In this document: piece after piece, positions 1 to 16,633 of the stretch
How the letters are laid out: each line of letters begins with the position of its first letter
Position numbering within the stretch: the stretch's first letter is position 1
Source of the DNA: an uncultured Cloacibacillus sp.
GTDB taxonomy: Bacteria; Synergistota; Synergistia; Synergistales; Synergistaceae
Length of the DNA: 18,642 nucleotides
NCBI GenBank assembly: GCA_900545755.1
Contig: URAG01000041.1
Coordinates: 1-18,642, forward strand
Direction: 5' to 3'
The notes under the pieces: generated by a model
What the model was told of the DNA's origin: nothing
Databases searched by the model: none
Seen by the model: only the letters and a program-made list of their open reading frames with translations
Made by a program: the position numbers and the translations under genes

Positions 1-3000
1 ATAAAAGATAAGTTCAAAGACTGGCTTTTCGGCGACATGGCGCGGCGCGAGGTGCTTGTCGAAAAATACAACAGCATCTTCAATACGACGAGGCCTAGAG
101 AATACGACGGCTCGCATATCACATTTTCCGGCATGAACCCGGAGATACGGCTGACGAAGCACCAGCGGGACGCGATAGCGAGGATACTTTACGGCCCGAA
201 CACGCTGCTCGCCCACGTCGTCGGAGCCGGGAAGACATTTGAGATGGTTGCCTCCGCGATGGAAAGCAAGCGGCTCGGCCTATGCCGCAAGAGCATGATA
301 GTCGTTCCGAACCATCTCACGGAACAGACGGCATCTGAGTTTATGAAGTTATACCCCGCCGCGAATATACTCGTGACGACGAAGCGCGACTTTGAGACGA
401 AAAACCGCAAGACCTTCTGCGCGAGGATCGCGACAGGGGAATATGACGCTGTAATTATAGGTTTCTCGCAGTTTGAAAAAATCCCGGTGAGCGAAGAGCG
501 TCAGGAACGGTACATCCAGCAGCAGATAGACGACATCGTTTTCGGCATAGATGATATGAAACAAAGCGACGCGCCGCGTTACTCGGTGAAGCGTCTCGAA
601 AAAATGAAAATCTCTCTCGAAGCAAAGCTCAAAAGTCTGCACGAGCGTATGGACGCGAGAAAAGACGACGTCATTACTTTTGAGGAGCTTGGGGTGGACA
701 GGCTTTATATAGATGAAGCGCACAACTTCAAAAATCTTATGGTTTACACCAAGATGCAGAACGTAGCCGGGATATCCACGAGCGATGCTCAGAAGAGCAA
801 CGACTTATATCTCAAGTGCCGCTATATAGACGAGATAACCGGCGGGACGGGGATAATATTCGCGACCGGCACGCCGGTCAGCAACAGTATGGTAGAGCTT
901 TACACGATGCAGCGCTATCTCCAGCTCAATGAGCTCGAGAAACACGGGCTTACGCATTTTGACGCTTGGGCCTCCACTTTCGGGGAAACGATCACATCTA
1001 TAGAGCTTTCGCCGGAGGGCAACGGCTATCGTGCGCGGACGCGTTTCTCTAAATTTTTCAACCTTCCGGAATTGATGGCCATGTTCCGCGAAGTGGCAGA
1101 TATAAAGACCGCCGATCTTCTGAATCTGCCGGTGCCGGAGGCGCACTTCGAAAACGTGGCCGTTCCGCCCACCGGCGAACAGCTCAAAATGATAGAAAAG
1201 CTCGCTGAACGGGCCGAAGACGTCAGGAACAAGCGCGTCGAGCCGTGGCAGGACAACATGCTTAAGATTACCTCAGACGGCAGGAAGATAGGCCTAGACC
1301 AGAGGCTTATGGACTGCGGGCTCGACGACGACCCTGACAGCAAGGTCAACTCCTGCGTCCGCAACGTGCTTCGGATATGGGAAGAAACGAAGGAGCAGAA
1401 GTCCACGCAGCTCATATTCTGCGACTTTTCCACTCCGTCCAAGGAATTCAATTTATACGACGATATCAAAGCCAAGCTGATAAAGGCCGGAGTGCCCGAG
1501 AACGAAATAGCTTTTATCCACGACGCGAATACGGAGGTAAAAAAGGCGGCTTTGTTTTCAAAGGTGCGCGCGGGCAATGTCCGCGTCCTTATGGGAAGCA
1601 CGCAGAAGATGGGAGCCGGGACTAACGTGCAGGAGCGGCTCGTAGCCTCACACGATTTAGACTGCCCGTGGCGGCCCGCGGATCTCGAACAGCGCGCTGG
1701 ACGCATAATCCGTCAGGGAAACCGCAATAAGGAAGTCTACATCTACAGGTACGTCACAGAGCGCACATTCGACGCATACCTGTACCAGACGATCGAAAAC
1801 AAACAGAAATTCATCGCCCAGATAATGACGAGTAAGAACCCGCTGCGCAGCTGCGGGGACGTGGACGAGTCGGTTCTGCAATACGCCGAGGTCAAAGCGC
1901 TCTGCGCCGGAGACCCGAGGATAAAAGAAAAAATGGATTTGGACGTTCAGGTGGGACGGCTTCGGATGCTTAAGTCGGCCTATCAAAACAATAGGTATGA
2001 CCTTGAGCACAAGGTCGCTGTAGCTATTCCCAAAGAGCTCGCTGAGTGCAGGGACGTCGTAGAGAAGCTCAAGGGAGACGCCGAGCACCTGACACGCAAT
2101 ACGCACGACGATAACGAGGAGAAGTTCTCGCCTATGAGCTCGACTCTTTTCAACAAGGTATGCACGACGAGAAAGTCAGCGGGCGAAACCATCCTTATGG
2201 CGAAAGAACTCGCCAAGCAGGACGAGCCCATCCGCATAGGGGAGTATAGGGGGTTTGCGATGTATCTCACCTACCGCACTTTCGGCGGCGAATATGTGCT
2301 TACGCTTCACCGCGAAGGCGGCGTACAGCACCACGTTACGCTCGGCAGCGACGCCGTCGGCTGCGTCACCCGCGTCAACAACGCGCTGAACGAGATACCG
2401 AAGGCGCTTGAAGTCGAGCAAACGCGGCTTGAAGAACTGAACCGCAAGCTCGAAGGATATTCCAAGGAGTTGGGTAAGCCGTTTGCATACGAGGCTGAGC
2501 TTGAGGAGAAATCCAAACGACTGAACGAGCTTGATACGCTTCTCAACCTCGACAGTGCGAGATGCGGAAAACACGAGGATATCGCGATTCCGCAGCCTGC
2601 GGCGGCGGAAGAGGTCTCCGACGACGCGTTTTTATCCAACGACTATCCGTGCCGCATAGAGCTGGACGGCGAGGTCTTCGGCTCAGCGTCGCAGGCGTAT
2701 CTCTATTTCATGTGCAAAGAACAGGACGACCGTGAAAAGGTGCTCGCAGCCGCGTCTCCTTCGGAGGCGCAGGCAGCCGTCGTAGGCGCGCCGGTGCGCG
2801 ACGGATGGTATTTTTCGGGGAGCCTGGACGCGATGAAAGACGTCGTAGAAGCAAAATTTACGCAGAATCCTGAGCTTGCGGCGAAACTCGCCGCATCGGA
2901 CGATAGCGCGCTCACGTACAAAAACGGAGGACAGGGCAAATTCTGGAGCGTCGACGCGAACACCGGGGAGGGAGAGAACCATCTTGGCAAGATACTGATG

Positions 3001-3144
3001 CTGGTCAAGGAACACATCGCCGATTTAAGGAATCTCAACGGAAATGCAACGGCCCGCGCGCTGGAAGAGTCCGCCAAACACACGCTGCCGCTCACAGCGG
3101 ACGAGCGCGTCATGTCAACAGCCGTTTCGGTGAGATGCAGGTAA
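1..3144 (+). CDS. Large SNF2-family helicase of a conjugative element, C-terminal part, with a terminal NADAR-like domain
   Basis: The reading frame is open from base 1; the ATG at 37 is internal, since the conserved block begins before it. Numbering from that ATG, the visible part has Walker A VGAGKT (62-67), the DEAH box (226-229), a motif III-like ATGTP (about 277-281) and the C-terminal helicase motif DLEQRAGRIIRQGN (from 549). A charged, coiled-coil-like stretch spans about 650-850. Such proteins are very large ATP-dependent DNA translocases of conjugative elements, often with an N-terminal methyltransferase, which here would lie outside the window. Residues about 863-1000 resemble a NADAR (YbiA/DUF1768) domain: FLSNDYP, LDG, VEAKFTQNPEL, FW and GEGENHLGKILM. 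Several residues usually conserved in NADAR are replaced: the Glu of the E-x-x-Y motif, the Glu after the substrate loop, and the Gly of WG. The domain may therefore be inactive or altered. The next gene follows after 40 bases, probably in the same transcript. Confidence 0.88.
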   Translation: MKDKFKDWLFGDMARREVLVEKYNSIFNTTRPREYDGSHITFSGMNPEIRLTKHQRDAIARILYGPNTLLAHVVGAGKTFEMVASAMESKRLGLCRKSMIVVPNHLTEQTASEFMKLYPAANILVTTKRDFETKNRKTFCARIATGEYDAVIIGFSQFEKIPVSEERQERYIQQQIDDIVFGIDDMKQSDAPRYSVKRLEKMKISLEAKLKSLHERMDARKDDVITFEELGVDRLYIDEAHNFKNLMVYTKMQNVAGISTSDAQKSNDLYLKCRYIDEITGGTGIIFATGTPVSNSMVELYTMQRYLQLNELEKHGLTHFDAWASTFGETITSIELSPEGNGYRARTRFSKFFNLPELMAMFREVADIKTADLLNLPVPEAHFENVAVPPTGEQLKMIEKLAERAEDVRNKRVEPWQDNMLKITSDGRKIGLDQRLMDCGLDDDPDSKVNSCVRNVLRIWEETKEQKSTQLIFCDFSTPSKEFNLYDDIKAKLIKAGVPENEIAFIHDANTEVKKAALFSKVRAGNVRVLMGSTQKMGAGTNVQERLVASHDLDCPWRPADLEQRAGRIIRQGNRNKEVYIYRYVTERTFDAYLYQTIENKQKFIAQIMTSKNPLRSCGDVDESVLQYAEVKALCAGDPRIKEKMDLDVQVGRLRMLKSAYQNNRYDLEHKVAVAIPKELAECRDVVEKLKGDAEHLTRNTHDDNEEKFSPMSSTLFNKVCTTRKSAGETILMAKELAKQDEPIRIGEYRGFAMYLTYRTFGGEYVLTLHREGGVQHHVTLGSDAVGCVTRVNNALNEIPKALEVEQTRLEELNRKLEGYSKELGKPFAYEAELEEKSKRLNELDTLLNLDSARCGKHEDIAIPQPAAAEEVSDDAFLSNDYPCRIELDGEVFGSASQAYLYFMCKEQDDREKVLAAASPSEAQAAVVGAPVRDGWYFSGSLDAMKDVVEAKFTQNPELAAKLAASDDSALTYKNGGQGKFWSVDANTGEGENHLGKILMLVKEHIADLRNLNGNATARALEESAKHTLPLTADERVMSTAVSVRCR

Positions 3145-3184: not shown

Positions 3185-4087
3185 ATGGCAGACAACCGCG
3201 AAAAAGAACAGTACGAGCGCAAGACGGAAGACCTGCTTAGCGGGAGCGCTTTCGTCCACAGGTCATACGACAGAGGGAAAACGATAGTTGGGACGATTTC
3301 TGGCGAGGTGAAGAAGAGCACGATAACGAAGAAAGATGACGGAACGAAAATCTACACGGCGGCGTTTGACCTGAAGCCGCTACAGGCGAAAGTTCCGGCG
3401 ATTTCCGTCGATATCCGCAGCATGGAGCCAATAGACATGAGCCCGTTCGAACACGGCGCGCTGCTCGCCGTCACAGGACAGAGATTTCTCGTCACGCCGC
3501 GCGATAAAGACGGACACACCGCTGGAGAGCGCAGGCCGGTCCTCTTTGCCAGGTCGGTACACAGCGCCGTGCTCGGAGAAAACAACAGGCCCGAGATAAT
3601 AGAGACTGTGATCCCAGCAGATAAGATGACGAAGACGGAATTTTACAGAGCGGCGAACGAGCTGCTTACAGGCTATGTTTTCAACAGCAGATACTCTGTT
3701 TTTAACGAGCGAATAAGTTACATGACCGACCGCGGCGAGGCTGGACTGTACGGCTACGTCAGCCGCTTTTCCGTATCTTCGCCCAAATACGTCGAAGGGA
3801 AGAGGGCTGTAGACGAGGACGGCAGAGCCGAATACGAATACACGAAAGTCGATATGGTGACGAAAGAGCCGATAGACGTTCAATCTTTTATTTCGACTAA
3901 AGAGCACCCGCAGCGCCTGAGCCTGAAAGGCGCTTACAGGCTGTTCGACTACAAAGACGCAAACGGGAAGTGGCACAACAACATCGTGACGTTCGAACCG
4001 GTGATTTTATCGAAATATATTAAGAAAGAAACAGAGCTGAAAGAACAGAATGAACAGCAGGTACAATCCAAAGCTATGCGCAGATAG
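3185..4087 (+). CDS. Conjugative-element protein of unknown function
   Basis: This is a soluble 300-residue protein with no signal peptide or membrane segment and many charged residues. I do not recognise a family. The N-terminal half (about 30-120) reads as alternating beta strands, beginning TIVGTISGEVKK. The C-terminal half has a similar strand-rich character, with GLYGYVSRFSV at about 190-200 and SLKGAYRLFDY at about 247-257. This could mean one or two OB-like folds, and a single-stranded DNA-binding role beside a helicase would make sense, but that is inference. The start is the ATG at 3185, supported by a strong Shine-Dalgarno. The position directly after the helicase, with no terminator between them, suggests a shared transcript and a role in element transfer or replication. 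Confidence 0.75.
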   Translation: MADNREKEQYERKTEDLLSGSAFVHRSYDRGKTIVGTISGEVKKSTITKKDDGTKIYTAAFDLKPLQAKVPAISVDIRSMEPIDMSPFEHGALLAVTGQRFLVTPRDKDGHTAGERRPVLFARSVHSAVLGENNRPEIIETVIPADKMTKTEFYRAANELLTGYVFNSRYSVFNERISYMTDRGEAGLYGYVSRFSVSSPKYVEGKRAVDEDGRAEYEYTKVDMVTKEPIDVQSFISTKEHPQRLSLKGAYRLFDYKDANGKWHNNIVTFEPVILSKYIKKETELKEQNEQQVQSKAMRR

Positions 4088-4179: not shown

Positions 4180-4204
4180 ATATTTAGAACTTAAAAACAT
4201 GAGC

Positions 4205-4209
4205 GGAGG
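4205..4209 (+). promoter_or_regulatory. Ribosome binding site deciding a GTG start at 4217
   Basis: GGAGG lies 7 bases before an in-frame GTG at 4217. The in-frame ATG at 4199 overlaps this site and has no Shine-Dalgarno of its own, because only an A-rich stretch precedes it. The GTG is therefore the better start. Confidence 0.7.
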
Positions 4210-4216
4210 TAACGGC

Positions 4217-5680
4217 GTGCCGGAAGACAAACTGATTGCGGAAGAAACCGAATACGATTTTAAGGCTGCATTAGAAACAAACAAGCCCAAAAGTTGGTTG
4301 AAGAGCGTCAGTGCATTTGCAAACGGCATAGGCGGTACATTGTACTTTGGTGTTGATAATGGCGGTAATATCATCGGATTGAAAAACGCACAAGCTGATG
4401 CAGAGAGCATCAGCAGTTTCATAAAGGATCGCATCACGCCATGTCCTGACTTTATTCTTAATTCTATGCGGTATAACGGGAAGGATTATATAGCCTTAAA
4501 AGTGTTTTCAGGCAGAGACACGCCCTATTGCCTAAAAGCAGATGGGAGAAAAGAAACTTATATAAGGGTTGGAAACGAAAGCATCCCTGCTCCAGACAAC
4601 GTGCTCAAAAAGTTGCTGCTGAACGGCGTCAACAAAAGTTATGACGCGTTAATGTCGCCTTATGATTTCAAAGACTATGCTTTTTCAAAGTTGCGCGAAC
4701 GCTATAAGGCTTTGACTGGTGAAAGCATGGAAGAAAAACTCTTTGATTCTTTTGAAATAAGAGATGCTAATGGAAAACTCACTAACGCGGGTGCATTACT
4801 AGCAGACGATTCACCGGTAAGGCACTCAAGGTTGTTTTACACAAGATGGGGTGGGCTTGATAAAAGCGGCGGCCTGGTCGATGCTCTTGATAGTGCTGAG
4901 TTTTCTGGCAGTTTGATCATTCTTCTTAACGAAGGGCTCGGTTTTATCAAAAGAAACATGAAAACAATGTGGAAAAAGACCGCCGACTCACGCATAGACA
5001 TGCCAGACTACTGCGAGCGCAGCTTTATCGAGGGGCTTGTAAACGCGTTGATTCACCGCGATTATCTGATATTAGGTGGCGAGGTACATATTGATATATA
5101 CGACGACCGCATGACAATCTATTCTCCAGGCGGTATGCCGGACGGGACGATGATACAAGACCGAGATGTCGCTTATGTCGCCTCTACTCGCCGTAACCCG
5201 ATTCTAGCCGATATTTTCGGACGTCTCGGATATATGGAGCGCCAGGGTAGCGGTCTCAGTAAAATCCGTGACGCATACGAAAGAGCAGCTAATTTCCGGA
5301 AAGGACTGGAGCCATCTTTCTATTCAGATCAAACGCAATTTACCGTCACTCTGCCAAACTTGAACTATGGCGTTGTGTTCGATAATGTGGCGATTGAAGA
5401 AGGAAACGTGATGATTGATGGCGAAAATGTGTCGTTTGAAAGTACAAATGCGTTGATTATGACGGCGATTGACGGGTTAAAGGTAAACCAGCCAACTAAA
5501 GATAAAATTCAAGCTATCTTCCAAAAATTTGGTTTCGCTGTCTTTGGTAGAAAAGATGTCATGGAAATAACGGGGGTAGCACAGACCGCATCTGGCAATC
5601 TTATAAACAAGATGAAAGCGGCAGGATTGGTAGAGCCCGTCAGCGGCATGGGAAAGGGAAAATATCGGTTTATTAAGTGA
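4217..5680 (+). CDS. AlbA_2 domain / ATP-binding / winged-helix regulator
   Basis: From the GTG start the protein has 487 residues. Residues about 8-130 form an AlbA_2 (Schlafen-type, formerly AAA_4) putative nucleic-acid-binding domain: ESxxYDFKAAL-like start, FANGIGGTLYFGVDNGG, and a YIRVGNES end. Residues about 265-370 are the usual C-terminal ATP-binding region (HATPase_c_4 type): EGLVNALIHRDY, DDRMTIYSPGGMP, RRNPILADIF and RQGSGLSKI. The last 60 residues contain a winged-helix-like segment (RKDVMEITGVAQTASGNLINKM). Family members are annotated as transcriptional regulators or divergent helicase-like ATP-binding proteins; many are mobile-element or phage cargo and some sit in defence islands. 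Its base composition is visibly more AT-rich than the helicase upstream and the mutase genes downstream, and it has its own upstream gap. Both suggest separate acquisition. The specific target is unknown. Confidence 0.85.
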   Translation: MPEDKLIAEETEYDFKAALETNKPKSWLKSVSAFANGIGGTLYFGVDNGGNIIGLKNAQADAESISSFIKDRITPCPDFILNSMRYNGKDYIALKVFSGRDTPYCLKADGRKETYIRVGNESIPAPDNVLKKLLLNGVNKSYDALMSPYDFKDYAFSKLRERYKALTGESMEEKLFDSFEIRDANGKLTNAGALLADDSPVRHSRLFYTRWGGLDKSGGLVDALDSAEFSGSLIILLNEGLGFIKRNMKTMWKKTADSRIDMPDYCERSFIEGLVNALIHRDYLILGGEVHIDIYDDRMTIYSPGGMPDGTMIQDRDVAYVASTRRNPILADIFGRLGYMERQGSGLSKIRDAYERAANFRKGLEPSFYSDQTQFTVTLPNLNYGVVFDNVAIEEGNVMIDGENVSFESTNALIMTAIDGLKVNQPTKDKIQAIFQKFGFAVFGRKDVMEITGVAQTASGNLINKMKAAGLVEPVSGMGKGKYRFIK

Positions 5681-5894: not shown

Positions 5895-5917
5895 AAAGTT
5901 ACAATTAAATATAAAGA

Positions 5918-6050
5918 TGCAGATGTTCGGGAATCAGGTGTGAAACCTGAGCGGCCCCGCCACTGTGACCGTGACGACGCGCAAAGCCACTGGATTTTCC
6001 CCGGGAAGGCGCGCAGGTAGGATGAACGGAAGTCAGGAGACCGGTCTGCA
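5918..6050 (+). promoter_or_regulatory. Cobalamin (B12) riboswitch aptamer
   Basis: The conserved elements occur in the right order. The closing helix is TGCAGA 5918-5923 with TCTGCA 6045-6050. Next come GGGAA, a P3 hairpin (TCAGGT 5934-5939 with ACCTGA 5945-5950), the core GCCACTGTGA 5959-5968, AAGCCACTGG 5984-5993, CCGGGAAGG 6001-6009 and the B12 box AAGTCAGGAGACC 6030-6042. The RNA binds adenosylcobalamin or a related corrinoid in the nascent transcript. The next gene is the AdoCbl-dependent mutase, not a transporter or synthesis gene. That is a less common target. Confidence 0.95.
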
Positions 6051-6062
6051 AGGCTTAGGTGG

Positions 6063-6086
6063 CAATCTCTGCGCGGGCGGAGATTG
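6063..6086 (+). promoter_or_regulatory. P13-like hairpin with kissing loop (riboswitch expression platform)
   Basis: The stem CAATCTC 6063-6069 pairs with GAGATTG 6080-6086 around a 10-base loop. Loop bases GCGGG 6073-6077 are complementary to CCCGC 5956-5960 in the aptamer L5 region, which is the expected L5-L13 kissing contact of cobalamin riboswitches. Loop bases CGCGGGCG 6072-6079 are also perfectly complementary to CGCCCGCG 6143-6150, the 5' arm and loop of the downstream terminator. The two pairings exclude each other. Confidence 0.75.
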
Positions 6087-6139
6087 TCAGAAGTGTTTTT
6101 TGAGGTCGTGTACACGCCTTCAAAGTAGCCTATGTTACG

Positions 6140-6166
6140 GATCGCCCGCGGGGCGGTCTTTTTTTT
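6140..6166 (+). terminator. Riboswitch-controlled intrinsic terminator before mutA
   Basis: An 8-bp stem, GATCGCCC 6140-6147 with GGGCGGTC 6151-6158 (one G-U pair), closes a 3-base loop and is followed by eight T residues. It ends 37 bases before the mutA start, so it must be bypassed for the operon to be expressed. It is the natural off state of the riboswitch. Confidence 0.88.
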
Positions 6167-6185
6167 GCCCGCCGCCGTAATGGAG

Positions 6186-6194
6186 AGGAAGGGA
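6186..6194 (+). promoter_or_regulatory. Ribosome binding site of mutA, deciding a GTG start
   Basis: The purine-rich AGGAAGGGA lies 9 bases before an in-frame GTG at 6204. Two upstream in-frame ATGs are less likely. The one at 6132 precedes and reads through the terminator hairpin, and the one at 6180 has no Shine-Dalgarno. Confidence 0.6.
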
Positions 6195-6203
6195 ACGTAT
6201 GCC

Positions 6204-8387
6204 GTGGAAGAAACCGGAGTAAAGCGTGAGGATTATCCTCGTGTGCCGTTCGGAGAGTTTGCCGAACCAAGTCGCGAGGAATGGTATGCGGAAGCGAACT
6301 CCGCGCTGAAGGGCGCGCCGTTTGACAAAAAAATGTATACGGAGACTTACGAGGGGATTCTGCTTAAACCGATCTATAATCTCGAGGACGCTGAGTCGTT
6401 TCTGAAGCTTGGCGGCTTTCCTGGAGAAGCGCCTTTCCTTCGTGGTACGAGGAGCTCCGGTTATATCGCTTCGCCGTGGAACGTTTCACAGGGCGTCGGT
6501 GAGGTTATTCCAGAGGCCGCCGCGGAGGCTGCAAAGCGCGAGCTTGAGCACGGCGCGACAGTTGCAAACTTCGGGCTTGACGAATGTACGCTGCTTGGGG
6601 CCGACCCGTCGCCGGAGATTTTCACGGGAGATTACCGCGGGCTCTCTCTTACTACGTTGCGCGATGCGGAAACGGTTTTTTCAGGCTTTGATTTTTCAAA
6701 AACGCCCGTCTACATCTACGCGGGAGCTTCGGCCGTGCCAATGCTCGGCCTTTTCGGGGCGCGGGCGAGGGCGGCGGGCGAGAGGGCTTCGCTTGCTTCA
6801 GCGCGCGGCTGCATAGGCGCGGACCCGCTCGGCGAGCTCGCGCGGCGCGGGACACTGCCCGTCCCTATCGACGAGCTTTACGACGAGATGGCGCTTGCCA
6901 TCGAATGGGCGGAGCTGAACGTGCCGGGGATAAAGACGATAGCGATACAGGGCGCGGCCTATCATGACGGCGGCGCGAGCGCTGTGCAGGAGACGGCATA
7001 CGTCGTGAGCGCTGCGATAGCCTATATGCGCGCGCTGAAGTGCAGGGGAATCGAGCCGGAACGTGTGGCGAGGCAGATAAAATTCAGCTTTTCCGTCGGT
7101 ACAAACTTCTTTATGGAAATAGCGCGGCTTCGTGCGGCGCGCGCGGTGTGGGCGCAGGTTGCGGAGGCGTTCGGCGTGCCGCCGGAAGAGGCCAAGCTTG
7201 ACGTGCTTGCGCGCACTTCGCGCTTCACCGAGACGGTTTACGACCCCTACGTGAATATACTGCGCGCGACGACGCAGGCCTTCTCGTGCGCGGTCGGCGG
7301 CGCGGACGACATGCAGGTTGGATGTTTCGACGGCGCGGTGCGCCCCGAGACGGAGTTCTCGATGCGCGTCGCGCGCAACATACAGATAATGTTACAGAAG
7401 GAATTCGACATGCTTCAGCCTGTGGATCCGGCTGGCGGCTCTTGGTACGTCGAGCGACTCACGCAGCAGTGCGCAGCGAAGATATGGGAACTTATACAGT
7501 CTGTAGACGGCGAGGGTGGCCTCTACGCCGCGCTCAAAAAAGGCTCTGTGCAGGACGCGGTCGGCAAGGTTTTCCAGAAACGACTGAAAAATCTCGCCTT
7601 CCGTAAAGACCGCGCCGTCGGCACGAACATGTATCCGAACATACTGGAGAAGCCGCTTGAGGACACGTCGCCGAAGGGCGCGGAGCTTTACGCGGCGCGC
7701 CGCGAGGCGATAGACAAATTCCTCGAAGTTTCGGAGCGCCGCCACGCGGCGGAGCTTCTGGCGAATCTGCACGAGGCGGTGAACGCGGGAGGCGGCGGCT
7801 TCGTGGAGCGCGTCGCCGAGGCGTTCATGTCGGGTGCGACGATAGGCGAGGTGCGCCGCGCTCTCGACGACGGTTTCGAGGGCGAGGAGACGGCGCGCGC
7901 GATAGGCGTCCACCGCTGGACGGAGGAGATAGAGGAGCTGCGCCGCCGTACCGAGGACTACATGGCGAAGACCGGAAAGACTGTGAAAATTTTCCTCGCG
8001 AACATGGGGCCAGTGCCGCAGCACAAGGCTCGCGCGGATTTCAGCGCTGGCTTCATGGAGGTCGCGCACTTCGACGTGATACGCAGCGACGGATTTTCCT
8101 CGCCCGAGGATGCCGCGAAGGCCGCCGCGGAGTCGGGGGCCTGCGCCGCGGTGATATGCTCGACGGACGACACCTATCCCGAGCTCGTGCCGCCTGTCGC
8201 CTCAGGCATAAAGGCCGCCGCGCCGGATATGATGGTTTTCGTCGCGGGAGCGCCCGCGGCTGAATATAAGGACTCGTACCTGGACGCCGGAGTGGACGGC
8301 TTCATCCACGTAAAGGCGAACTGCCTCGAAATTTTGGGACAGATACAGGATATTGCGATGGGCGGCAAAGAAGCGGAGGCGCGTTAA
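6204..8387 (+). CDS. mutA: Methylmalonyl-CoA mutase small (beta) subunit
   Basis: This is the non-catalytic partner of the AdoCbl-dependent mutase that interconverts succinyl-CoA and (R)-methylmalonyl-CoA. Starting at GTG 6204 it has 727 residues. An N-terminal mutase barrel (about 45-560) shows FLRGTRSSG (78-86), [41 protein letters not shown] and [13 protein letters not shown]. From about 590 there is a second Rossmann-like domain, a degenerate cobalamin-binding fold. At the place where the catalytic subunit has DGHDRG it reads [11 protein letters not shown], so the axial histidine motif is absent, as expected for the small subunit. It is somewhat longer than the roughly 640 residues of the Propionibacterium protein. 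It is first in the operon, 37 bases after the riboswitch terminator, and its stop is one base before the mutB ATG. The exact start is the least certain part. Confidence 0.92.
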
Positions 8388-8388
8388 A

Positions 8389-10584
8389 ATGGCCGAAAGA
8401 TACCCGGATTTCACAAAAATACCGCTCGACATGAGCCCGCGCAGGCCAGTGTCGTTCGAGGAATGGAAGAAAAAGGTCGAACGCGAGACGGGAAAGCCCT
8501 TCGAGAGCCTCATGCGCAGGACGATGGAGCAGATAGACGTAGCACCGCTCTACACCGAGGCCGACTACGAGGGCATGACGCACCTGAAATACACGGCGGG
8601 CATCCCCCCCTTCCTGCGCGGGCCGTACCCGACGATGTACGTCACGCGCCCGTGGACGGTGCGCCAGTACGCGGGATTCTCGACAGCGGAAGAAAGCAAC
8701 GCATTTTACCGCCGCAACCTCGCTGCGGGGCAGAAGGGGCTTTCGATAGCCTTCGACCTCGCGACGCACCGCGGCTACGACTCGGATCACCCGCGCGTCG
8801 TCGGCGACGTGGGCAAGGCGGGCGTCGCTGTGGACTCGATACTCGACATGGAGATACTTTTCTCGGGCATCCCGCTCGGGCAGATGTCCGTCTCGATGAC
8901 GATGAACGGCGCGGTGCTTCCAGTCATGGCCTTCTACATCGTCGCGGCGGAGGAGCAGGGCGTCGACAAGTCCGTCCTCTCCGGCACGATACAGAACGAC
9001 ATACTCAAAGAATTCATGGTGCGCAACACCTACATCTACCCGCCCGCGCCTTCGATGAGGATAATCGGCGACATATTCGCCTACACCTCGAAGAACATGC
9101 CTAAGTTCAACAGCATAAGCATCTCGGGCTACCACATGCAGGAGGCTGGGGCGACGGCGGACATCGAACTCGGCTACACGCTCGCCGACGGCCTCGAATA
9201 CATCAGGACGGGGCAGGCCGCGGGCCTCGGTGTAGACGATTTCGCGCCGCGCCTCTCCTTCTTCTGGGCGATGGGCAAGAACTACTTCATGGAAGTGGCG
9301 AAGATGCGCGCGGGACGGATGCTCTGGGCCAAGATAGTTAAGCAGTTCAACCCGAAAAAGGCGAAGTCGATGGCGTTGCGCACGCATTCGCAGACCTCGG
9401 GCTGGAGCCTCACGGAGCAGGACCCGTTCAACAACGTCGCGCGCACCTGCATAGAGGCGATGGCGGCGGCGCTCGGACACACGCAGTCGCTGCACACCAA
9501 CGCGCTCGACGAGGCGATAGCCCTGCCGACGGACTTCTCGGCGCGAATAGCGCGCAACACGCAGCTCTACATACAGGACGAGACGAGCGTCTGTAAGGTC
9601 ATAGACCCGTGGGGCGGCTCGTACTACGTCGAGGCGCTCACCGACGAGCTGATACGCCGCGCATGGGCGCACATCCAGGAGGTCGAGTCGCTCGGCGGGA
9701 TGTCGAAGGCGATAGAGACGGGGCTTCCGAAGATGCGCATAGAGGAGGCCGCTGCGCGCCGTCAGGCACGCATAGACTCCGGCAGCGAAAAGATAGTCGG
9801 CGTCAACTGCCTGCGCCTCGAACACGAAGACCCGATAGACATCCTCGAAGTCGACAACACCGCGGTGCGCGAGGCGCAGCTCGCGCGTCTCGAAAAATTA
9901 CGTGCGAACAGAGACCAGGATGAGGTAGAGCGCCGTCTCGACGCAATAACGAAATCTATGGAGACGGGCGAGGGTAACCTTCTTGAACTCGCGGTCGAGG
10001 CCGCGCGCGCGAGGGCGAGCCTCGGCGAAATCTCCTACGCTATAGAAAAAGTGGTCGGGAGGCATCAGGCCGTGATACGCTCAATATCGGGCATATACAG
10101 CAGCGAATTTGCCGACGAGGAAATAATAGAAGAAGTCAGGAAAATGACCGACGACTTCGAGAAACGTGAAGGCCGCCGTCCGCGCATAATGGTCGCGAAG
10201 ATGGGGCAGGATGGACACGACCGCGGCGCGAAGGTCGTCGCGACCGCCTACGCCGACATGGGATTCGACGTCGACGTGGGGCCGCTCTTCCAGACGCCCG
10301 AGGAGACCGCGCAGGACGCCGTCGACAACGACGTGCACATCGTCGGCATGAGCTCGCTCGCCGCGGGGCACAAGACCCTGCTCCCGCAGCTCGTTGAAGA
10401 GCTGAAGAAGCGTGGGCGCGGCGACATAATGGTCGTCGCGGGAGGCGTTATCCCGGCGCAGGACTACCAGTTCCTCTACGACCACGGCGCAGCGGCGATA
10501 TTCGGCCCCGGCACCGTCATTCCCGTCGCGGCGAAGGAAATGCTGACGATACTCAACAAGCGTCTCGCGGAGGCGCAGGGATAA
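8389..10584 (+). CDS. mutB: Methylmalonyl-CoA mutase large (alpha, catalytic) subunit
   Basis: This is the catalytic subunit of AdoCbl-dependent methylmalonyl-CoA mutase, 731 residues. The ATG at 8389 has GGAGG at 8375-8379 and gives the usual length; the frame is open further upstream but only overlaps mutA. The barrel has [18 protein letters not shown] (active-site Tyr about 94), [44 protein letters not shown] and [13 protein letters not shown]. The C-terminal cobalamin domain has MGQDGHDRG. Its histidine falls at residue 610, the same number as the axial cobalt ligand of the Propionibacterium enzyme. This is followed by GMSSLAAGH and [11 protein letters not shown]. With MutA it forms the heterodimer. 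In an amino-acid or succinate fermenter it would work toward propionate. Epimerase, decarboxylase and CoA-transferase genes are not in the window. Confidence 0.97.
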
Positions 10585-10585
10585 A

Positions 10586-11734
10586 ATGGGCGGCGGAACG
10601 GCGGACACGCGCCGCGCGGACGAAATCGGACGCACGGCCCCCGAATGGAGGCCGGAGGGCGCGGGCACGGAATTCGCCTGCTCCGTCATGTCCGGCGTGA
10701 AAGCCCGGGCCGTCCCGCGCGAATACACGGGCGCACCCGCCGCGAGGCCGGCAACCGCCGAAGACTACGCGCGCGGCATAACGGCGGGCGACCGCGTGAC
10801 GCTCGCGCGCGCGATAACAGTGATAGAAAGCAACGCGCCGAAGCACTTCGAGCTCGGGCAGGAGATAATCCGGCTCGTGCTGCCGCGCACGGGGCGCGCC
10901 ATGCGCGTCGGCATAACGGGCATCCCGGGCGCGGGAAAAAGCACATTCATCGAAGCGCTCGGCACGCGCCTCTGCGGCGAGGGGCACAAGGTCGCCGTGC
11001 TCGCCGTCGACCCGTCGAGCTCGCTCACCAAAGGCAGCATACTCGGCGACAAAACGCGTATGGAAAAGCTCGCGCGCGAGAAAAACGCCTTCATCCGCCC
11101 CTCGCCCTCGGGCGGCTCGCTCGGCGGCGTAACGCGCAAAAGCCGCGAAACGATGCTGCTCTGCGAGGCCGCGGGCTACGACACGATACTCGTCGAGACC
11201 GTCGGCGTCGGGCAGAGCGAGACCGCCGTGCGCTCGATGGTAGACTTCTTCCTCGTCGTCGTGATAACTGGCGCGGGCGACGAGCTTCAGGGCATCAAAA
11301 AGGGAATAATAGAGCTCGCCGACGCGATACTCGTCAACAAGGCGGACGGCGGCAACAAGCTGCGCGCGATGACTGCGCGCGCGGACTACGAACAGATCCT
11401 GCACTATCTGCGCCCAGCCACGGAAGGCTGGAGGACAGGCGCTTACACGTGCTCGTCGCTGACGGGCGAGGGAATAGACGAAATATGGAACGTCGTCGAA
11501 AAATTCAGGGAGACGACGGAACACTCGGGATTTTTCCAAAAGCGCCGCGCAGAACAGACAATAGAGTGGGTACGCGCGATGGCGGAAGAATACATAAAAA
11601 ACCGCGTCGCTGGAAACGCGGAGCTCGCAGAGCGCCGCGAGGAAATAGAAAGGCAGGTGATTGCCGGAGCCGTAACTCCGACCGTGGCGGCGAAAGCCGT
11701 GATAGACGAGATGGAGGGGCTGTTGTTCAAATAA
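10586..11734 (+). CDS. meaB: Methylmalonyl-CoA mutase chaperone GTPase MeaB (ArgK family)
   Basis: This G3E-type P-loop GTPase protects and reloads the mutase with adenosylcobalamin. In its 382 residues it shows Walker A GIPGAGKST (112-120), the VDPSSS motif (141-146), the SGGSLGGVTRKSRET block (175-189), ETVGVGQSE (204-212) and NKAD (251-254). The C-terminal helical dimerisation arm includes RAEQTIEWVRAMAEEY. The first 45-55 residues are an extension, rich in Gly, Ala and Arg, not normally present in MeaB, which usually starts close to the segment at about residue 60. No Shine-Dalgarno is seen before the internal Met35, whereas GGAGG at 10569 and AGGG at 10577 precede the ATG at 10586. The start is one base after the mutB stop, with almost the same junction sequence as mutA-mutB. 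Confidence 0.95.
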   Translation: MGGGTADTRRADEIGRTAPEWRPEGAGTEFACSVMSGVKARAVPREYTGAPAARPATAEDYARGITAGDRVTLARAITVIESNAPKHFELGQEIIRLVLPRTGRAMRVGITGIPGAGKSTFIEALGTRLCGEGHKVAVLAVDPSSSLTKGSILGDKTRMEKLAREKNAFIRPSPSGGSLGGVTRKSRETMLLCEAAGYDTILVETVGVGQSETAVRSMVDFFLVVVITGAGDELQGIKKGIIELADAILVNKADGGNKLRAMTARADYEQILHYLRPATEGWRTGAYTCSSLTGEGIDEIWNVVEKFRETTEHSGFFQKRRAEQTIEWVRAMAEEYIKNRVAGNAELAERREEIERQVIAGAVTPTVAAKAVIDEMEGLLFK

Positions 11735-12291: not shown

Positions 12292-13080
12292 CTAGCTGTT
12301 TATGCTGAAAGAGAAGGGAACTCTTACACGGATAGTACCGCGGCTATTAAATTTCCAACCTTTCAAAGCTCTCATCGCAGAATCGTCAAGACGGCTGTGA
12401 CCACTTGAACTTTCGAGTTCAACTGATGTTACTGAGCCGTTCTCAACGAGCGCTATTATAACGACAGTTCCTTCTTCGCGGCGCTTGCGCGAAAAGAGCG
12501 GGTATTCGGGTGTTACTTTTTTCAGGACCTCAAGCTCTGATAGGTTGGCGATACCGCTTCCCGTGCCCACACCAACGCCAGAGCCTCCGCCAGTACCGCC
12601 GCCGCTTCCTCCTCCGAGTCCTTCACCACGTCCGGTATCACCTCCCGCTTCAGCGTTTTCTCCGCCTCTCTGTACATCGGGAAGAATATTCGTCTGTGGG
12701 GCGACGGCGTCTCCCTCATGCCGTATGCTGTTTCCCTTTATAGCAGGAGCATGAGTTATGGTTTGTGTTTCTTTAGGTTTAACTACAGGAGCTGCTTTCT
12801 TTATTTTCGGCGAAGTTTTTGCTTTAACCGATTTTACCGACTTTGCGCGCTCGAGCGAAGACTTTTGGGAGGAAAACACTCTTGCTTGAGACGCTGGTTT
12901 ACCCCCGCCGCCACCGCCGGAACTGTGCGGCCCCGGCAAGGTTACAAGGCGTACAGACATCACCGGATTTTCTTCCAATTGGCGCTCAGGCACAGACTTT
13001 AAGACAAAAAACAGCGCAAGATGAATAGAAAGGCTGAGTATCACAGCTACGCGCCATCGTCCCCGTTCTCCTACGCTCAT
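12292..13080 (-). CDS. tonB: TonB family energy-transducing protein
   Basis: This protein couples the ExbB-ExbD proton motor in the inner membrane to an outer-membrane receptor. Its 262 residues have a short cytoplasmic N-terminus and a single membrane anchor (about 11-27) that contains Ser16 and His20 in the S-x-x-x-H arrangement critical in E. coli TonB. A lysine-rich segment (about 77-105) follows, then a long Gly/Ser-rich linker (about 140-175) where most TonBs have a Pro-rich rod. The C-terminal TonB domain (about 185-262) has TPEYPLFSRKRREEGTV, SVELESSSGHSRLD and a W-K-F end. The ATG overlaps the exbD stop by four bases (ATGA). It is last in the uptake operon; the matching outer-membrane receptor is not in the window. 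Confidence 0.93.
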   Translation of the reverse strand: MSVGERGRWRVAVILSLSIHLALFFVLKSVPERQLEENPVMSVRLVTLPGPHSSGGGGGGKPASQARVFSSQKSSLERAKSVKSVKAKTSPKIKKAAPVVKPKETQTITHAPAIKGNSIRHEGDAVAPQTNILPDVQRGGENAEAGGDTGRGEGLGGGSGGGTGGGSGVGVGTGSGIANLSELEVLKKVTPEYPLFSRKRREEGTVVIIALVENGSVTSVELESSSGHSRLDDSAMRALKGWKFNSRGTIRVRVPFSFSINS

Positions 13081-13466
13081 TCAGCCCGACCTCCTGAAAG
13101 CAACAACCCGGCTGAGCTTACGCCTTGGCTGCGCAGCAGCGAGAGAATGGAAGCTACATCGCCGTAAGGTACTCCTTCGTCTCCGGCAATGAGTATTTCC
13201 CGTCCTTTCTCCATCTCAGCCGCATTAGAAAGCTCGTCTCTGCTTATTTCTTGCCCGTTCCAATAAAGTTTTTTGTCTGTGGCGACGGTCAGGACGACGG
13301 CTCCCCGCGTGTCTGCGGAATCGCCGTCACCCTGCGGCAGGTTTACGTCCAGCTTTCCCTGGACGAACGAGGCGGTGAGCACAAAGAATATGATGAGCAT
13401 AAAAAGGACGTCTATAAGCGGGGTTATGTCGATATCAACTCCGCAGCGTTTTTTCCCTTTTCTCAT
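13077..13466 (-). CDS. exbD: ExbD-type biopolymer transport protein
   Basis: This is the proton-channel partner of ExbB in the TonB motor, 129 residues. The N-terminal segment DIDITPLIDVLFMLIIFF (11-28) carries the membrane aspartate (Asp19, equivalent to Asp25 of E. coli ExbD) used for proton translocation. The rest is a small periplasmic domain of the usual kind, with a WNGQEISRDEL-like segment and a final helix-strand ending LLLSGG. Start and stop both lie in four-base ATGA overlaps, with exbB upstream and tonB downstream, which implies translational coupling and equal dosage. TolR is the alternative name for the family, but the tonB neighbour favours ExbD. Confidence 0.95.
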   Translation of the reverse strand: MRKGKKRCGVDIDITPLIDVLFMLIIFFVLTASFVQGKLDVNLPQGDGDSADTRGAVVLTVATDKKLYWNGQEISRDELSNAAEMEKGREILIAGDEGVPYGDVASILSLLRSQGVSSAGLLLSGGRAE

Positions 13467-14062
13467 GATCTGCGCTTCCTGTGCAGGTGCAGCACCCAGT
13501 CGGCTCCGCGCTGTAATTTTTCTTCTTCACTGTCTATCCTTGAATTCAGCAGCCCATTTATGAATATAACCGGTATAGCGACAGTAAGCCCCGCGACCGT
13601 CGTGTAGAGCGCTTTCCAGATGCCGCCCGTTACGGCTTCCGCGCTGATCTGCCCTCCCATGTGCAGGGAGCCAAACATTTCAACCATGCCGAGAACGGTT
13701 CCCAGCAGCCCGAGAAGCGGCGAGAGCTTGCCGACCATCTCGAGTATGAACAGATGTTTTTCCCATCTGTATATCTCGCGCCGTATGCTTTCTTCGGTGA
13801 GAAGCTTCATGTCCTCGCGCTCCGCATCCCATTGGGAGAGCGCATCCGCAAACAGGCGTGCAAGCGAGCTGTCCGCCGACTGAAGCTCGGCTTTTCCATG
13901 CTCGCCGCGGACGGCTGAAGCGAAAATGCGTTCAAGTTCCTCTGCACTGCCGGACGCCCTGCGGAAGAACATAAGACGCTCTATCACCACGGCGAGCGCG
14001 ACGACGGACAGCGCCGCTATGATCCACATTATGCTTCCGCCTTCGTTCATGTAATTAAGCAT
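13463..14062 (-). CDS. exbB: ExbB-type proton channel subunit
   Basis: This MotA/TolQ/ExbB family inner-membrane protein has 199 residues. It has three membrane segments: about 11-32, 105-130 (with the conserved LSPLLGLLGTVLGM, 113-126) and 150-172 (ALYTTVAGLTVAIP, 151-164). A cytoplasmic loop of about 70 residues separates the first two. It assembles with ExbD around the TonB anchor. The ATG at 14062 has AAAGGAGG seven bases before it and overlaps the end of the cbiR-like gene by eight bases, so the motor genes are in the same transcript as the cobamide import genes. The substrate is inferred from this context only. Confidence 0.95.
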   Translation of the reverse strand: MLNYMNEGGSIMWIIAALSVVALAVVIERLMFFRRASGSAEELERIFASAVRGEHGKAELQSADSSLARLFADALSQWDAEREDMKLLTEESIRREIYRWEKHLFILEMVGKLSPLLGLLGTVLGMVEMFGSLHMGGQISAEAVTGGIWKALYTTVAGLTVAIPVIFINGLLNSRIDSEEEKLQRGADWVLHLHRKRRS

Positions 14063-14864
14063 GTAAATCCTCCTTTGCCATTTCGCTGGCGAATTTTCTC
14101 AGAAAATCTACGGATGTTCCGTAATCGTCTTCAAAAACCTCGATCGTCATAATGCGCTCCCCTCCGTCGGAAGCCAGTATCTTCAGCACGCGCGACAGAA
14201 GCCCCTTGTCGAAATAGGTCATAGCGCTGTGATCCACCCCGTCCGGCTTCACTCCGTGAATATGCAGCACGCGCGTCGCGCTGAGGTATTTCGTGAGCAG
14301 CTCTTCGACCGGATAGCCGTACATCACGAGATGTCCCACGTCTATGCAGGCGGAAATGCCTGTTTCGGCGATGACGGGCCACAGATACCCGAAGTTGAAG
14401 TCCAGCGTCTCGGCGCATATCAGCTTTCTATCGTGCGCGGCTCCTGCGATGCGTCCGGCGGATCCCGCAGTCAGTTCGCGCCAGCGCTCCATATCAGCGC
14501 TCGGGACGGTTCCGTACCGTTCTCCGCATAGGTGCAGCACGTAGGCGTAAGGATTCAGACAGTCGAAGAGCTCCATTATTCTTAAGCACGAATCCTCACA
14601 GCGCCGTCTCTCGGATGCGTCAAGCGACATACAGACGTTTTCCGCAAAATGCACGGTGCAGCTCATACCGAGCTCGAGCTTCAGCTCGGCAAGCGCGCGC
14701 ACTTCGTCTTTGGAGGGGATGTTCGAACCGTAAGCGTTGTCAAAGAGCACAAGCTGCATATCGTCGACATCGCGCGAAAGCTCGCGCAGATTTCCGGCGA
14801 ATCCGTCGTGGACCACCCACGAAGTCCCGCCGAAGCGTACGCCTGGGAATCTGAGCCGCTCCAT
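14055..14864 (-). CDS. cbiR: Sugar-isomerase/AP-endonuclease-2 type TIM barrel, probable cobamide-remodelling enzyme CbiR
   Basis: This 269-residue protein has the AP_endonuc_2 (xylose isomerase-like) barrel pattern of metal ligands: VHFAEN (His72), LHLCGE (His111), CAETLDF (Glu152), CIDVGH (Asp175, His178), LHIHGV (His201 and His203), DH (211-212) and IEVFEDD (Glu242). CbiR, described in Akkermansia muciniphila, belongs to this superfamily. It cleaves the nucleotide loop of imported cobamides so that a preferred lower ligand can be attached. Here the gene sits between btuC and exbB in a cobamide uptake operon, directly adjoining the btuC stop (no gap) and overlapping exbB. No signal peptide is present, so it acts in the cytoplasm after import. 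The family also includes sugar epimerases and endonuclease IV; the operon context is what favours CbiR. Confidence 0.8.
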   Translation of the reverse strand: MERLRFPGVRFGGTSWVVHDGFAGNLRELSRDVDDMQLVLFDNAYGSNIPSKDEVRALAELKLELGMSCTVHFAENVCMSLDASERRRCEDSCLRIMELFDCLNPYAYVLHLCGERYGTVPSADMERWRELTAGSAGRIAGAAHDRKLICAETLDFNFGYLWPVIAETGISACIDVGHLVMYGYPVEELLTKYLSATRVLHIHGVKPDGVDHSAMTYFDKGLLSRVLKILASDGGERIMTIEVFEDDYGTSVDFLRKFASEMAKEDLHA

Positions 14865-15842
14865 CTATCCGTTCCCCCGGATCACAAGCCAGATGAAGAA
14901 GAGCGCGCCGAGCGACGAAGTTAGAATCCCGACGGGCAGCTCAGCGGGAGCCCACAGCGTTCGCGCGGCGGCGTCGCACAGGACAAGGAAAGCCCCGCCT
15001 GTAAAAACGCAGAGGACGGACAGGCTGCGGTGTTCGCCCCATCCGGCCAGCCTGCGGCAGATATGTGGGCACATAAGTCCGACGAAGCCTATCGGGCCGC
15101 AGAGCGCGACGTTGACGCCGACCGCAAGCGAAACAGCGAGGAAAAGAAAACGCCGCAGGGCCTTTACGGAAACGCCGCGGCTGGCGGCGAGCGTCTCGCC
15201 GCATACGAGCAGGTCGAGCTGCGGGCCGACGGCCCAGCCTGTGAGCGCGATGAAAATAAAACCGGGGAGAGAGACGAGAGGCGGAACGCAGCCGATAGTA
15301 TCCAGCCCGCCCATAGTCCAGCGCATCATGCGGAACGAGTCGGTATAGCCTCCGGTGTACTGGATAATCATATTGAGGCTGCCGCACAGAAAGTTCAGCG
15401 CGATGCCTGACAGCAGCAGCGACTGAGCGGAAAAGCCGCCGCGCTTAGCCCCTCCTGCCGCGTAGAGCGCCGCGACCGCTGCGAAAGCGCCCAGGAAGGC
15501 CGCGCAGGCGCCTCCGCTTATAACGCCGAGGAAGGCCGACGCAAATCCGAGGCGGATATACAGCACCGCGCCTAGAGCCGCTCCTGACGAGACGCCGAGC
15601 ATATCCGGCGAGGCCAGCGAATTTCTGAAAAGAGCCTGAAAAATCAGGCCGCATACCGACAGCGTCGCGCCGGTCAGCCATGCAAGAAGGACGCGGGGGA
15701 CGCGCATCTCCCACAGGATCTGACTGGCAGGCGTCCCATGCACGAAGGCGCTGTGAAGATCTATCGAAGCCGCGCCGAAGAACGGAGCCGCGGCAAGAAC
15801 CACAAGCGACGTCAGAGCCGCGGCGCAGATACTCCGCTTCAT
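14865..15842 (-). CDS. btuC: Cobamide ABC transporter permease (FecCD/BtuC family)
   Basis: This inner-membrane permease of a corrinoid/iron-chelate class ABC importer has 325 residues and about ten hydrophobic helices. Family motifs are RVPRVLLAWLTGATLSVCG (about 48-66), FRNSLASPDMLGVSSGAALG (about 72-91), LSGIALNFLCGS and, near the end, GFVGLMCPHICRRLAG, which contacts the ATPase. The frame is open for 42 codons further upstream, but only the ATG at 15842 makes sense. It forms a four-base ATGA overlap with the btuD stop, and the protein then begins with a normal first helix. The family also carries siderophores and heme; the CbiR-like neighbour and the mutase operon favour cobamides. Confidence 0.93.
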   Translation of the reverse strand: MKRSICAAALTSLVVLAAAPFFGAASIDLHSAFVHGTPASQILWEMRVPRVLLAWLTGATLSVCGLIFQALFRNSLASPDMLGVSSGAALGAVLYIRLGFASAFLGVISGGACAAFLGAFAAVAALYAAGGAKRGGFSAQSLLLSGIALNFLCGSLNMIIQYTGGYTDSFRMMRWTMGGLDTIGCVPPLVSLPGFIFIALTGWAVGPQLDLLVCGETLAASRGVSVKALRRFLFLAVSLAVGVNVALCGPIGFVGLMCPHICRRLAGWGEHRSLSVLCVFTGGAFLVLCDAAARTLWAPAELPVGILTSSLGALFFIWLVIRGNG

Positions 15843-16633
15843 CCGGCAAGCCCTTTCGGGACGGCGTAGGGTATACGTCCGGCGGCGCTGCTGAAAAGCT
15901 CGAACTCCGTGCCGAAGATTTCGCTGAGCTTCCCGCCGTAGATCAAATCCTCCGGCAGTCCCTGCCACACGGAGCGCCCGTCCTTCACTGCGAGGATCTC
16001 GTCAGCGCCGTGCAGCGCGAGATTCACGTCGTGAGTGACCATTACCACGGTCTTGCCCTCTTTTTTATTGAGCCGCCCGATAAGGGCGGCGGCCTCCGCC
16101 TGATGGCGGTAGTCGAGATAGCTTGTAGGCTCGTCGAGGAAGAGGATGTCCGTCTCCTGCGCGAGAGCCGCCGCTATGAAAGCGCGCTGACGTTCGCCGC
16201 CGGAAAGAGTGCAGAGCCTGCGTTCCGCAAGAGAGGCCACTCCGGCGGTCTCAAGCGCCGCGTCGACGGCCGCGCGCTCCTCCGCGGACTCGCCGCCAAG
16301 CACAGGACGAAGCGCGAATCGCGACATTGAAGCGAACTGGCGCACCGTATAGATAAGACCTTCGCCGCTTCCCTGATGCACCCACGCGATACGGCGCGGC
16401 TGGGGGCGCGGAGTCATCGAAGCGACGGGCTCGCCGAACAGTCGCACGTCGCCCCGCCAGCCGCGTATAAGTCCGCCGGCGCACTTGAGCAGCGTGCTCT
16501 TGCCCGCTCCGTTCGGGCCGACGATGCAGAGAAAACCGCCTGCTTCAACCGAAAAGGAGACGCCGCGCAGAATCCGGGCATTCCCGACGGTGAACGAAAG
16601 GCCGCGAACGGTCACGGCCTTCTCTGCGGTCAT
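15839..16633 (-). CDS. btuD: Cobamide ABC transporter ATP-binding protein
   Basis: This ABC ATPase has 264 residues. Walker A is GPNGAGKST (39-47), the signature is LSGGERQ (143-149), Walker B is ILFLDEP (163-169), followed by a D-loop SYLD and the switch His201. It powers BtuC-mediated import from the periplasm. The frame extends 47 codons upstream into btuF, but the ATG at 16633 has GGAGG seven bases before it and overlaps the btuF stop by four bases. That arrangement is repeated through the operon. The C-terminal extension after about residue 235 is typical of FecE/BtuD proteins. Confidence 0.95.
   Translation of the reverse strand: MTAEKAVTVRGLSFTVGNARILRGVSFSVEAGGFLCIVGPNGAGKSTLLKCAGGLIRGWRGDVRLFGEPVASMTPRPQPRRIAWVHQGSGEGLIYTVRQFASMSRFALRPVLGGESAEERAAVDAALETAGVASLAERRLCTLSGGERQRAFIAAALAQETDILFLDEPTSYLDYRHQAEAAALIGRLNKKEGKTVVMVTHDVNLALHGADEILAVKDGRSVWQGLPEDLIYGGKLSEIFGTEFELFSSAAGRIPYAVPKGLAG

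What the first reader, a model, noticed from the sequence alone, without database searches (positions are those of the whole stretch)
2620..3040. NADAR-like domain fused to the end of a conjugative-element helicase
Residues about 863-1000 of the helicase carry FLSNDYP, VEAKFTQNPEL and GEGENHLGKILM, the pattern of NADAR (YbiA/DUF1768) domains. NADAR proteins can remove ADP-ribose from guanine and act as antitoxins to DarT-type toxins. Phages and conjugative elements are known to pack counter-defence domains into polyvalent proteins. A NADAR tail on the transfer-associated helicase could protect incoming element DNA from ADP-ribosylating defence. The usual Glu of the E-x-x-Y motif and the WG glycine look replaced, so it may instead be a non-catalytic ADP-ribose or nucleic-acid reader.
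Basis: partly seen in the sequence, partly recalled or inferred. Interest (0 to 1): 0.8.

Follow-up and report, generated by a model that had tools for sequence, protein, structure and literature searches.

The report
Dead NADAR domain on transfer helicase
A large DNA-protecting protein, probably of a mobile element, ends in a domain shaped like an enzyme that removes ADP-ribose from DNA, but this copy has lost the enzyme's working parts while keeping its fold, so it probably now binds something rather than cuts.

Summary
The NADAR tail is real. Residues 876-1006 of the window's first ORF (nt 2626-3018) match Pfam NADAR above its cut-off, and the predicted structure matches YbiA and ADP-ribose-bound Phytophthora NADAR. 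It sits behind a low-confidence linker at the end of a DarB-like methylase-SNF2 polyvalent protein; full-length relatives are about 2800 aa.

It is very probably not a working hydrolase. Seven of nine residues with ligand-contact or functional roles are replaced: E43S, K50M, K75Q, R79V, R93S, E125Y, D130G. All seven tail-bearing relatives found carry the same replacements, whereas 117 of 120 standalone homologs keep E43, K50, E125 and D130. Losing four basic residues at or near the pocket also argues against canonical ADP-ribose reading. The tail is not visibly decaying: 79% identical where the helicase is 86% identical.

None of 84 related helicases with a readable tail has it, and no helicase match in 185 Synergistota genomes extends into it. 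Best reading: a repurposed, non-catalytic NADAR fold, probably a protein-binding cargo module. The partner is unknown.

The parts
1..3144 (+). C-terminal 1047 aa of a DarB-like adenine-methylase/SNF2-helicase polyvalent protein; the 5' part lies outside the window (relatives are about 2800 aa)
   Evidence: ORF open at 5' end; phrog_10089 DarB-like antirestriction 8.3e-271; full-length relatives P0124-P0130
196..735 (+). SNF2-related ATPase lobe, residues 66-245, with Walker A GAGKT and DEAH box intact
   Evidence: PF00176 5.3e-8; G75, G77, K78, T79, D238, E239 invariant and H241 at least 90% conserved in the 25 aligned sequences
1369..1719 (+). Helicase C-terminal lobe, residues 457-573
   Evidence: PF00271 6.7e-7
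2548..2625 (+). Probably flexible linker, residues 850-875
   Evidence: pLDDT under 50 at residues 850-883 in the 1047-aa model, whose overall quality is low; the 61 residues before the tail are 57.4% identical between P0124 and P0130
2626..3018 (+). Degenerate NADAR (YbiA-fold) domain, residues 876-1006
2689..2712 (+). Former substrate helix SQAYLYFM: S897 in place of E43 and M904 in place of K50
   Evidence: 119 of 120 standalone homologs have E and 119 of 120 have K, the other being a truncated protein; all 7 tail-bearing relatives have S and M
2806..2808 (+). W936, retained W89 equivalent
   Evidence: W in 120 of 120 homologs
2917..2937 (+). Former catalytic loop: Y973 in place of E125, G979 in place of D130
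   Evidence: E in 119 of 120 and D in 119 of 120 homologs
2944..2946 (+). W982, retained W133 equivalent
   Evidence: W in 117 of 120 homologs
3185..4087 (+). 300-aa protein of unknown family, next gene of the presumed element
   Evidence: no Pfam, PHROG or NCBIfam match under E 0.1, no PADLOC match at 0.01; no relative at E 1e-5 among ORFs of loci L001-L088

Best explanation
The tail is a repurposed pseudo-NADAR. A YbiA-type NADAR domain became fused to the C-terminus of a DarB-like methylase/SNF2 polyvalent protein, at a position where other members of the family carry different tails or almost none. It then lost its hydrolase site and its phosphate-binding basic residues, and has been kept since as a folded module. 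Shown here: the fold, the fusion in seven protein clusters, the replaced residues, and the conservation. Inferred: that the protein travels with or acts on incoming element DNA as DarB does; that the tail is non-catalytic; and that it works by binding, most likely a protein partner such as a host defence factor or another element protein, while tethered by a flexible linker to the DNA translocase.
For: NADAR fold by sequence and structure. Seven full-length protein clusters share the architecture and the replacements. E43, K50, E125 and D130 are all replaced here, whereas 117 of 120 standalone homologs keep all four; K75, R79 and R93-type basics are also replaced. In E. coli C7 NADAR, mutation of D171 (E125 position) lost efficient hydrolysis and K95 (K50 position) was found essential for it (PMC11543638, passages). 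Between P0124 and P0130 the tail is 79.4% identical (85 of 107) against helicase 86.1%, methylase 78.6%, linker 57.4% and N-terminus 58.9% (borders set by hand). The tree stem is 1.21 against a median terminal branch of 0.24. 0 of 84 related helicases with a readable tail have a NADAR; of six such tails scanned with Pfam, one holds YodL and one DUF3991-Toprim. ATPase motifs are intact.
Against: Binding itself is not shown; no partner or ligand was identified. The enrichment of replacements at contact columns is only suggestive (6 of 8 against 16 of 45 conserved columns, Fisher p = 0.054). All seven replaced positions are identical in the relatives, but at a 21% overall variation rate (23 of 107) that could happen by chance (about 0.18, my arithmetic). 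P0130's last residues read as a shifted frame, so the last motif is not intact in every copy, and its tail falls below the Pfam cut-off. No dN/dS could be computed because DNA of the relatives was not available. Two pocket tryptophans and the GENHLG motif remain, so some residual binding is possible.
Confidence: 0.64

Rival explanations
1. It is an active NADAR hydrolase that strips ADP-ribose from incoming element DNA using a rearranged site.
For: NADAR fold is intact; W89, W133 and the GENHLG segment are kept; E88A alone had only a minor effect in vitro in C7 NADAR; a basic residue (K906, R in P0130) lies two positions after the lost K50.
Against: E43, K50, E125 and D130 are all replaced; the K50 and E125 equivalents were needed for efficient hydrolysis; of the 120 standalone homologs only one, a truncated protein, lacks two of the four and none lacks three.
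Confidence: 0.07
2. It is a non-catalytic reader that binds ADP-ribose or ADP-ribosylated nucleic acid and targets the methylase/helicase to modified DNA.
For: Two tryptophans of the ligand site are kept; inactive members of the TIR/DrHyd/SLOG class are described as sensors that bind nucleotides or their derivatives (PMC9503650, passage).
Against: K50, R79 and R93-position residues that hold the pyrophosphate are M, V and S; K75 is Q. Domain net charge is -8, as low or lower in only 2 of 120 homologs, though P0130 is -1 over columns that include its shifted end. Former polar helix positions are L and M.
Confidence: 0.12
3. It is a decaying remnant without function, carried along at the end of the helicase.
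For: Catalytic residues gone; P0130 ends in a shifted frame; the tail was not found on the 84 other helicases examined nor in the Synergistota matches.
Against: The tail is as conserved as the methylase region between P0124 and P0130 and far more than linker or N-terminus; many of the 23 variable positions change conservatively; the model folds with high confidence.
Confidence: 0.12
4. It is an intramolecular structural or regulatory cap of the helicase, with no outside partner.
For: Fixed position at the C-terminus in all seven clusters.
Against: A low-confidence, poorly conserved linker separates it from the helicase; related helicases at 43-62% identity do without it. The 1047-aa model (pTM 0.42) is too poor to test packing.
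Confidence: 0.05

Closest known systems
YbiA-family NADAR hydrolases (E. coli YbiA; Phytophthora nicotianae NADAR 8bau)
   Same: Fold, conserved segments of the YbiA-like homologs (LSN, KFTQNPEL, GENHLGKILM), two ligand-site tryptophans
   Different: Seven of nine functional or contact residues replaced, including E43, K50, E125 and D130; fused to a protein of about 2800 aa instead of standing alone
DarB-like methylase/SNF2 polyvalent proteins (phage P1 DarB; conjugative-element counterparts)
   Same: Adenine methylase followed by SNF2 ATPase with intact motifs; in P0124 the PHROG 10089 match spans about 1600 residues
   Different: C-terminal pseudo-NADAR; the 2017 survey of polyvalent proteins does not contain the word NADAR or YbiA in its main text
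SNA-3 of nematodes (three NADAR domains)
   Same: A large protein with a NADAR domain (NADAR 1) in which the residues critical in YbiA are not conserved (PMC9303266, passages)
   Different: Eukaryotic trans-splicing protein; its NADAR 2 and 3 keep such residues, and their mutation impairs the protein
P0002: NADAR plus PF08401 domain, 955 aa
   Same: NADAR joined in one protein to PF08401 (ArdC N-terminal domain, name recalled)
   Different: NADAR at the N-terminus with E, K, E and D intact; no SNF2 domain listed
P0131: 2540-aa protein with NADAR
   Same: Very long protein with an intact NADAR followed by a weak second NADAR-like stretch
   Different: Intact catalytic residues in the first copy; no methylase or helicase match at E 0.1

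Membership tests
NADAR superfamily (fold) | PF08719 match above the curated cut-off | tested here: met
   50.4 bits against 35.1; of the relatives, P0124 passes (47.2) and P0130 does not (23.8)
NADAR superfamily (fold) | YbiA fold (five core helices, two small sheets) | tested here: met
NADAR hydrolases (YbiA, BC4488 or phage type) | Glu, Asp or His at the E125 position | tested here: not met
   Y973 in window and in all 7 relatives
NADAR hydrolases | Glu at E43 and Lys at K50 | tested here: not met
   S897 and M904
NADAR hydrolases | De-ADP-ribosylation of guanine or N-glycosidase activity | not testable with these tools
   needs an enzyme assay
DarT1-associated NADAR antitoxin | Conserved lysine K115 (K75 position) | tested here: not met
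   Q924
DarT1-associated NADAR antitoxin | DarT gene beside it | not tested
   The window was not scanned for DarT with a profile, and the region upstream of it was not seen
DarB-like polyvalent protein | Adenine methylase followed by SWI2/SNF2 ATPase in one chain | tested here: met
   Shown in the relatives: Eco57I methylase above the Pfam cut-off in P0130 (26.1 against 25.3) and below it in P0124 (22.0), then SNF2 and Helicase_C; phrog_10089 over 1036-2640 of P0124. In the window only the SNF2 part is visible
DarB-like polyvalent protein | Encoded on a transferable element | tested here: inconclusive
   The relative H1 lies near relaxase, VirD4 and VirB4 genes, though PLSDB types that plasmid non-mobilizable; the window itself shows no transfer gene
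DarB-like polyvalent protein | Delivered with the DNA and protecting it in cis | not testable with these tools
   known for P1 DarB (PMC5512222, passage)

The most novel reading that the evidence does not exclude
The tail is an antitoxin mimic. A NADAR shell stripped of catalysis is delivered with element DNA and sequesters a host DNA-targeting ADP-ribosyltransferase, or competes with its cognate NADAR antitoxin, giving a stoichiometric rather than enzymatic counter-defence built into a DarB-type protein.
Probability: 0.14. Interest if true: 0.78.

Novelty: new variant of a known kind. Interest (0 to 1): 0.5.

Why it matters
NADAR domains are known as ADP-ribose hydrolases and antitoxins. Here a degenerate but conserved NADAR is the tail of a counter-restriction-type protein, with the same replaced pocket in every copy found. 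If its partner is a defence protein, the NADAR fold has been reused as a binding module in element-host conflict. A single domain of about 130 residues can be tested directly for ligand or partner binding.

Tried and rejected
Active hydrolase as main reading: rejected on residue loss. Canonical ADP-ribose reader: disfavoured on loss of basic residues. Plain decay: disfavoured on conservation. DNA mimicry by an acidic surface was considered because the domain's net charge is -8, but P0130 is -1 over the same columns, which include its shifted end, so it was not adopted.

Literature: listings for NADAR with conjugative and helicase (8 papers, all listed), polyvalent protein with NADAR (3, all listed) and NADAR with anti-defense and phage (6 held, 5 listed) showed no report of this fusion. 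The search for NADAR with inactive or pseudoenzyme terms (15 of 8,865 listed) was too broad to show anything. I read passages, not whole papers, except part 1 of 6 of PMC11125620. Only licence-open PMC papers are held, so absence from print is not shown.

Full report

Whole protein. A protein search whose candidates were limited to lengths around the ORF found no helicase with this tail. A search of the same region at a larger nominal length found eight proteins. P0124-P0129 (2806-2815 aa, 97-98% identical in the domain) and P0130 (2782 aa, 70% over the domain) are full-length relatives of the window protein. P0124 and P0130, which were scanned, have an Eco57I-type methylase region (below cut-off in P0124, above in P0130), SNF2 and helicase-C lobes, and the NADAR tail; all seven align with the window ORF over the helicase and into the tail. 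NADAR is above the Pfam cut-off in P0124 (47.2 bits) but below it in P0130 (23.8), whose end is shifted. The eighth, P0131 (2540 aa), is a different protein with an intact NADAR. In the table the seven helicase clusters hold 112 member sequences on 13 contigs.

Active site. Positions were mapped onto 8bau by the alignments; the spacing E43-K50, R79-W89-R93 and E125-D130-W133 agrees with the residues named in PMC11543638 (passages read). In the window E43 is S897, K50 is M904, K75 is Q924, R79 is V928, the R93 position is S941, E125 is Y973 and D130 is G979; W89 (W936) and W133 (W982) are kept. All seven tail-bearing relatives are the same at all nine positions. Of the 120 standalone homologs listed (120 of 652 reported), 117 keep E43, K50, E125 and D130; the other three are P0021 (C for D), P0114 (D for E) and P0094 (lacks the first two columns). 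The pairwise phmmer alignment to 8bau places a gap in the first of these helices; the profile alignments do not, and I follow the latter. The test that contact columns are hit more than other conserved columns gave 6 of 8 against 16 of 45, p = 0.054, which is not significant.

Is it maintained? Between P0124 and P0130 the tail up to the FW motif is 85 of 107 identical (79.4%), the helicase region 86.1%, the methylase region 78.6%, the 61 residues before the tail 57.4%, the first 600 residues 58.9% and residues 600-1050 51.4%. 23 of 107 positions vary among the window and its seven relatives, many of them conservatively. In a FastTree tree of 127 sequences the tail clade has a stem of 1.21 against a median terminal branch of 0.24, and P0130's own branch is 0.52 with its shifted end included: fast change first, slower change after. 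P0130's last residues do not match; they are compatible with 14 of 15 residues of the conserved end motif in another frame, against a maximum of 8 in 500 shuffled peptides. So that copy ends in a shifted frame, real or a sequencing error.

Distribution. 88 helicase loci were fetched (80 best of 397 in genome contigs; 8 in viral contigs). In them no ORF of 60 or more residues matched a NADAR profile that scores the window ORF at 118.5 bits. A readable helicase end with some tail was found in 84 of the 88 loci (46 of 85 aligned ORFs have tails of 100 residues or more), and none is NADAR. Of seven stretches scanned with Pfam (six tails and one whole C-terminal ORF), one tail carried DUF3991-Toprim and one YodL, four tails had no family, and the ORF of L069 had only its helicase domains. 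In 185 Synergistota genomes (phylum of the Fretibacterium locus L004; taxonomy), 12 have a NADAR match. Helicase-like matches end by residue 881, and the NADAR matches lie in separate short frames of at most 374 aa; only up to four candidates a genome were scored. The window's own chromosome is Synergistota-like: its mutA-mutB region is 76% identical to the best of those genomes.

Context. After the helicase come a 300-aa protein of unknown family, a Schlafen-AlbA_2/HATPase protein, and then genes that read as a methylmalonyl-CoA mutase operon behind a cobalamin riboswitch, which I take to be chromosome. In a related plasmid the helicase sits near a relaxase, VirD4 and VirB4 genes, although PLSDB types that plasmid non-mobilizable. 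The 2017 survey of polyvalent proteins describes the methylase-SNF2 dyad and DarB protection in cis and does not contain NADAR in its main text (passages). The 2022 survey of viral NAD/ADP-ribose systems says that viral NADARs are typically standalone outside RNA-virus polyproteins (passage).

Mechanism. The shape is kept, the hydrolase site and the phosphate-binding residues are gone, and the sequence appears constrained. The simplest reading is a module that binds something through a changed surface. A protein partner is more likely than ADP-ribose, because four basic residues at or near the pocket are gone and the domain is acidic (net charge -8, as low or lower in 2 of 120 homologs; P0130 is -1 with its shifted end). 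SNA-3 is a known case of a NADAR domain without the critical residues in a large protein (passages). The identity of the partner is open.

Noticed in passing
window 5904-6063 and 6132-11734: Cobalamin riboswitch (93.7 bits) directly before genes that read as methylmalonyl-CoA mutase small and large subunits and a MeaB-like GTPase (names recalled from the sequence, not from a profile search).
   Followed up: partly
window 12292-17532, minus strand: ORFs that read as a TonB/ExbD/ExbB set, an ABC permease and ATPase, and a periplasmic binding protein, perhaps B12 or metal-chelate uptake (recalled from sequence, no profile search).
   Followed up: no
window 4199-5680: Schlafen AlbA_2 plus HATPase_c_4 protein between the helicase and the chromosomal operon; partial PADLOC matches.
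   Followed up: partly
P0131 residues 950-1090 and 1128-1214: Intact NADAR followed by a weak second NADAR-like stretch in the same 2540-aa protein.
   Followed up: partly
P0002: Intact NADAR at the N-terminus of a 955-aa protein with the PF08401 domain (ArdC-type, name recalled).
   Followed up: partly
P0001: 822-aa protein with PF13306 repeats, a PF01467 nucleotidyltransferase domain (names recalled) and a NADAR in one chain.
   Followed up: no
P0130 last 24 residues: C-terminal end reads as a shifted frame of the conserved NADAR end motif.
   Followed up: yes
G034 contig 62, 3003-5108 minus and 6589-8694 plus: Two copies of the same helicase in inverted orientation with equal scores, real or an assembly artefact.
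   Followed up: no
G085 contig 2, 589633-590043: Standalone NADAR match interrupted by one stop codon; a second, uninterrupted one lies in the same genome.
   Followed up: no
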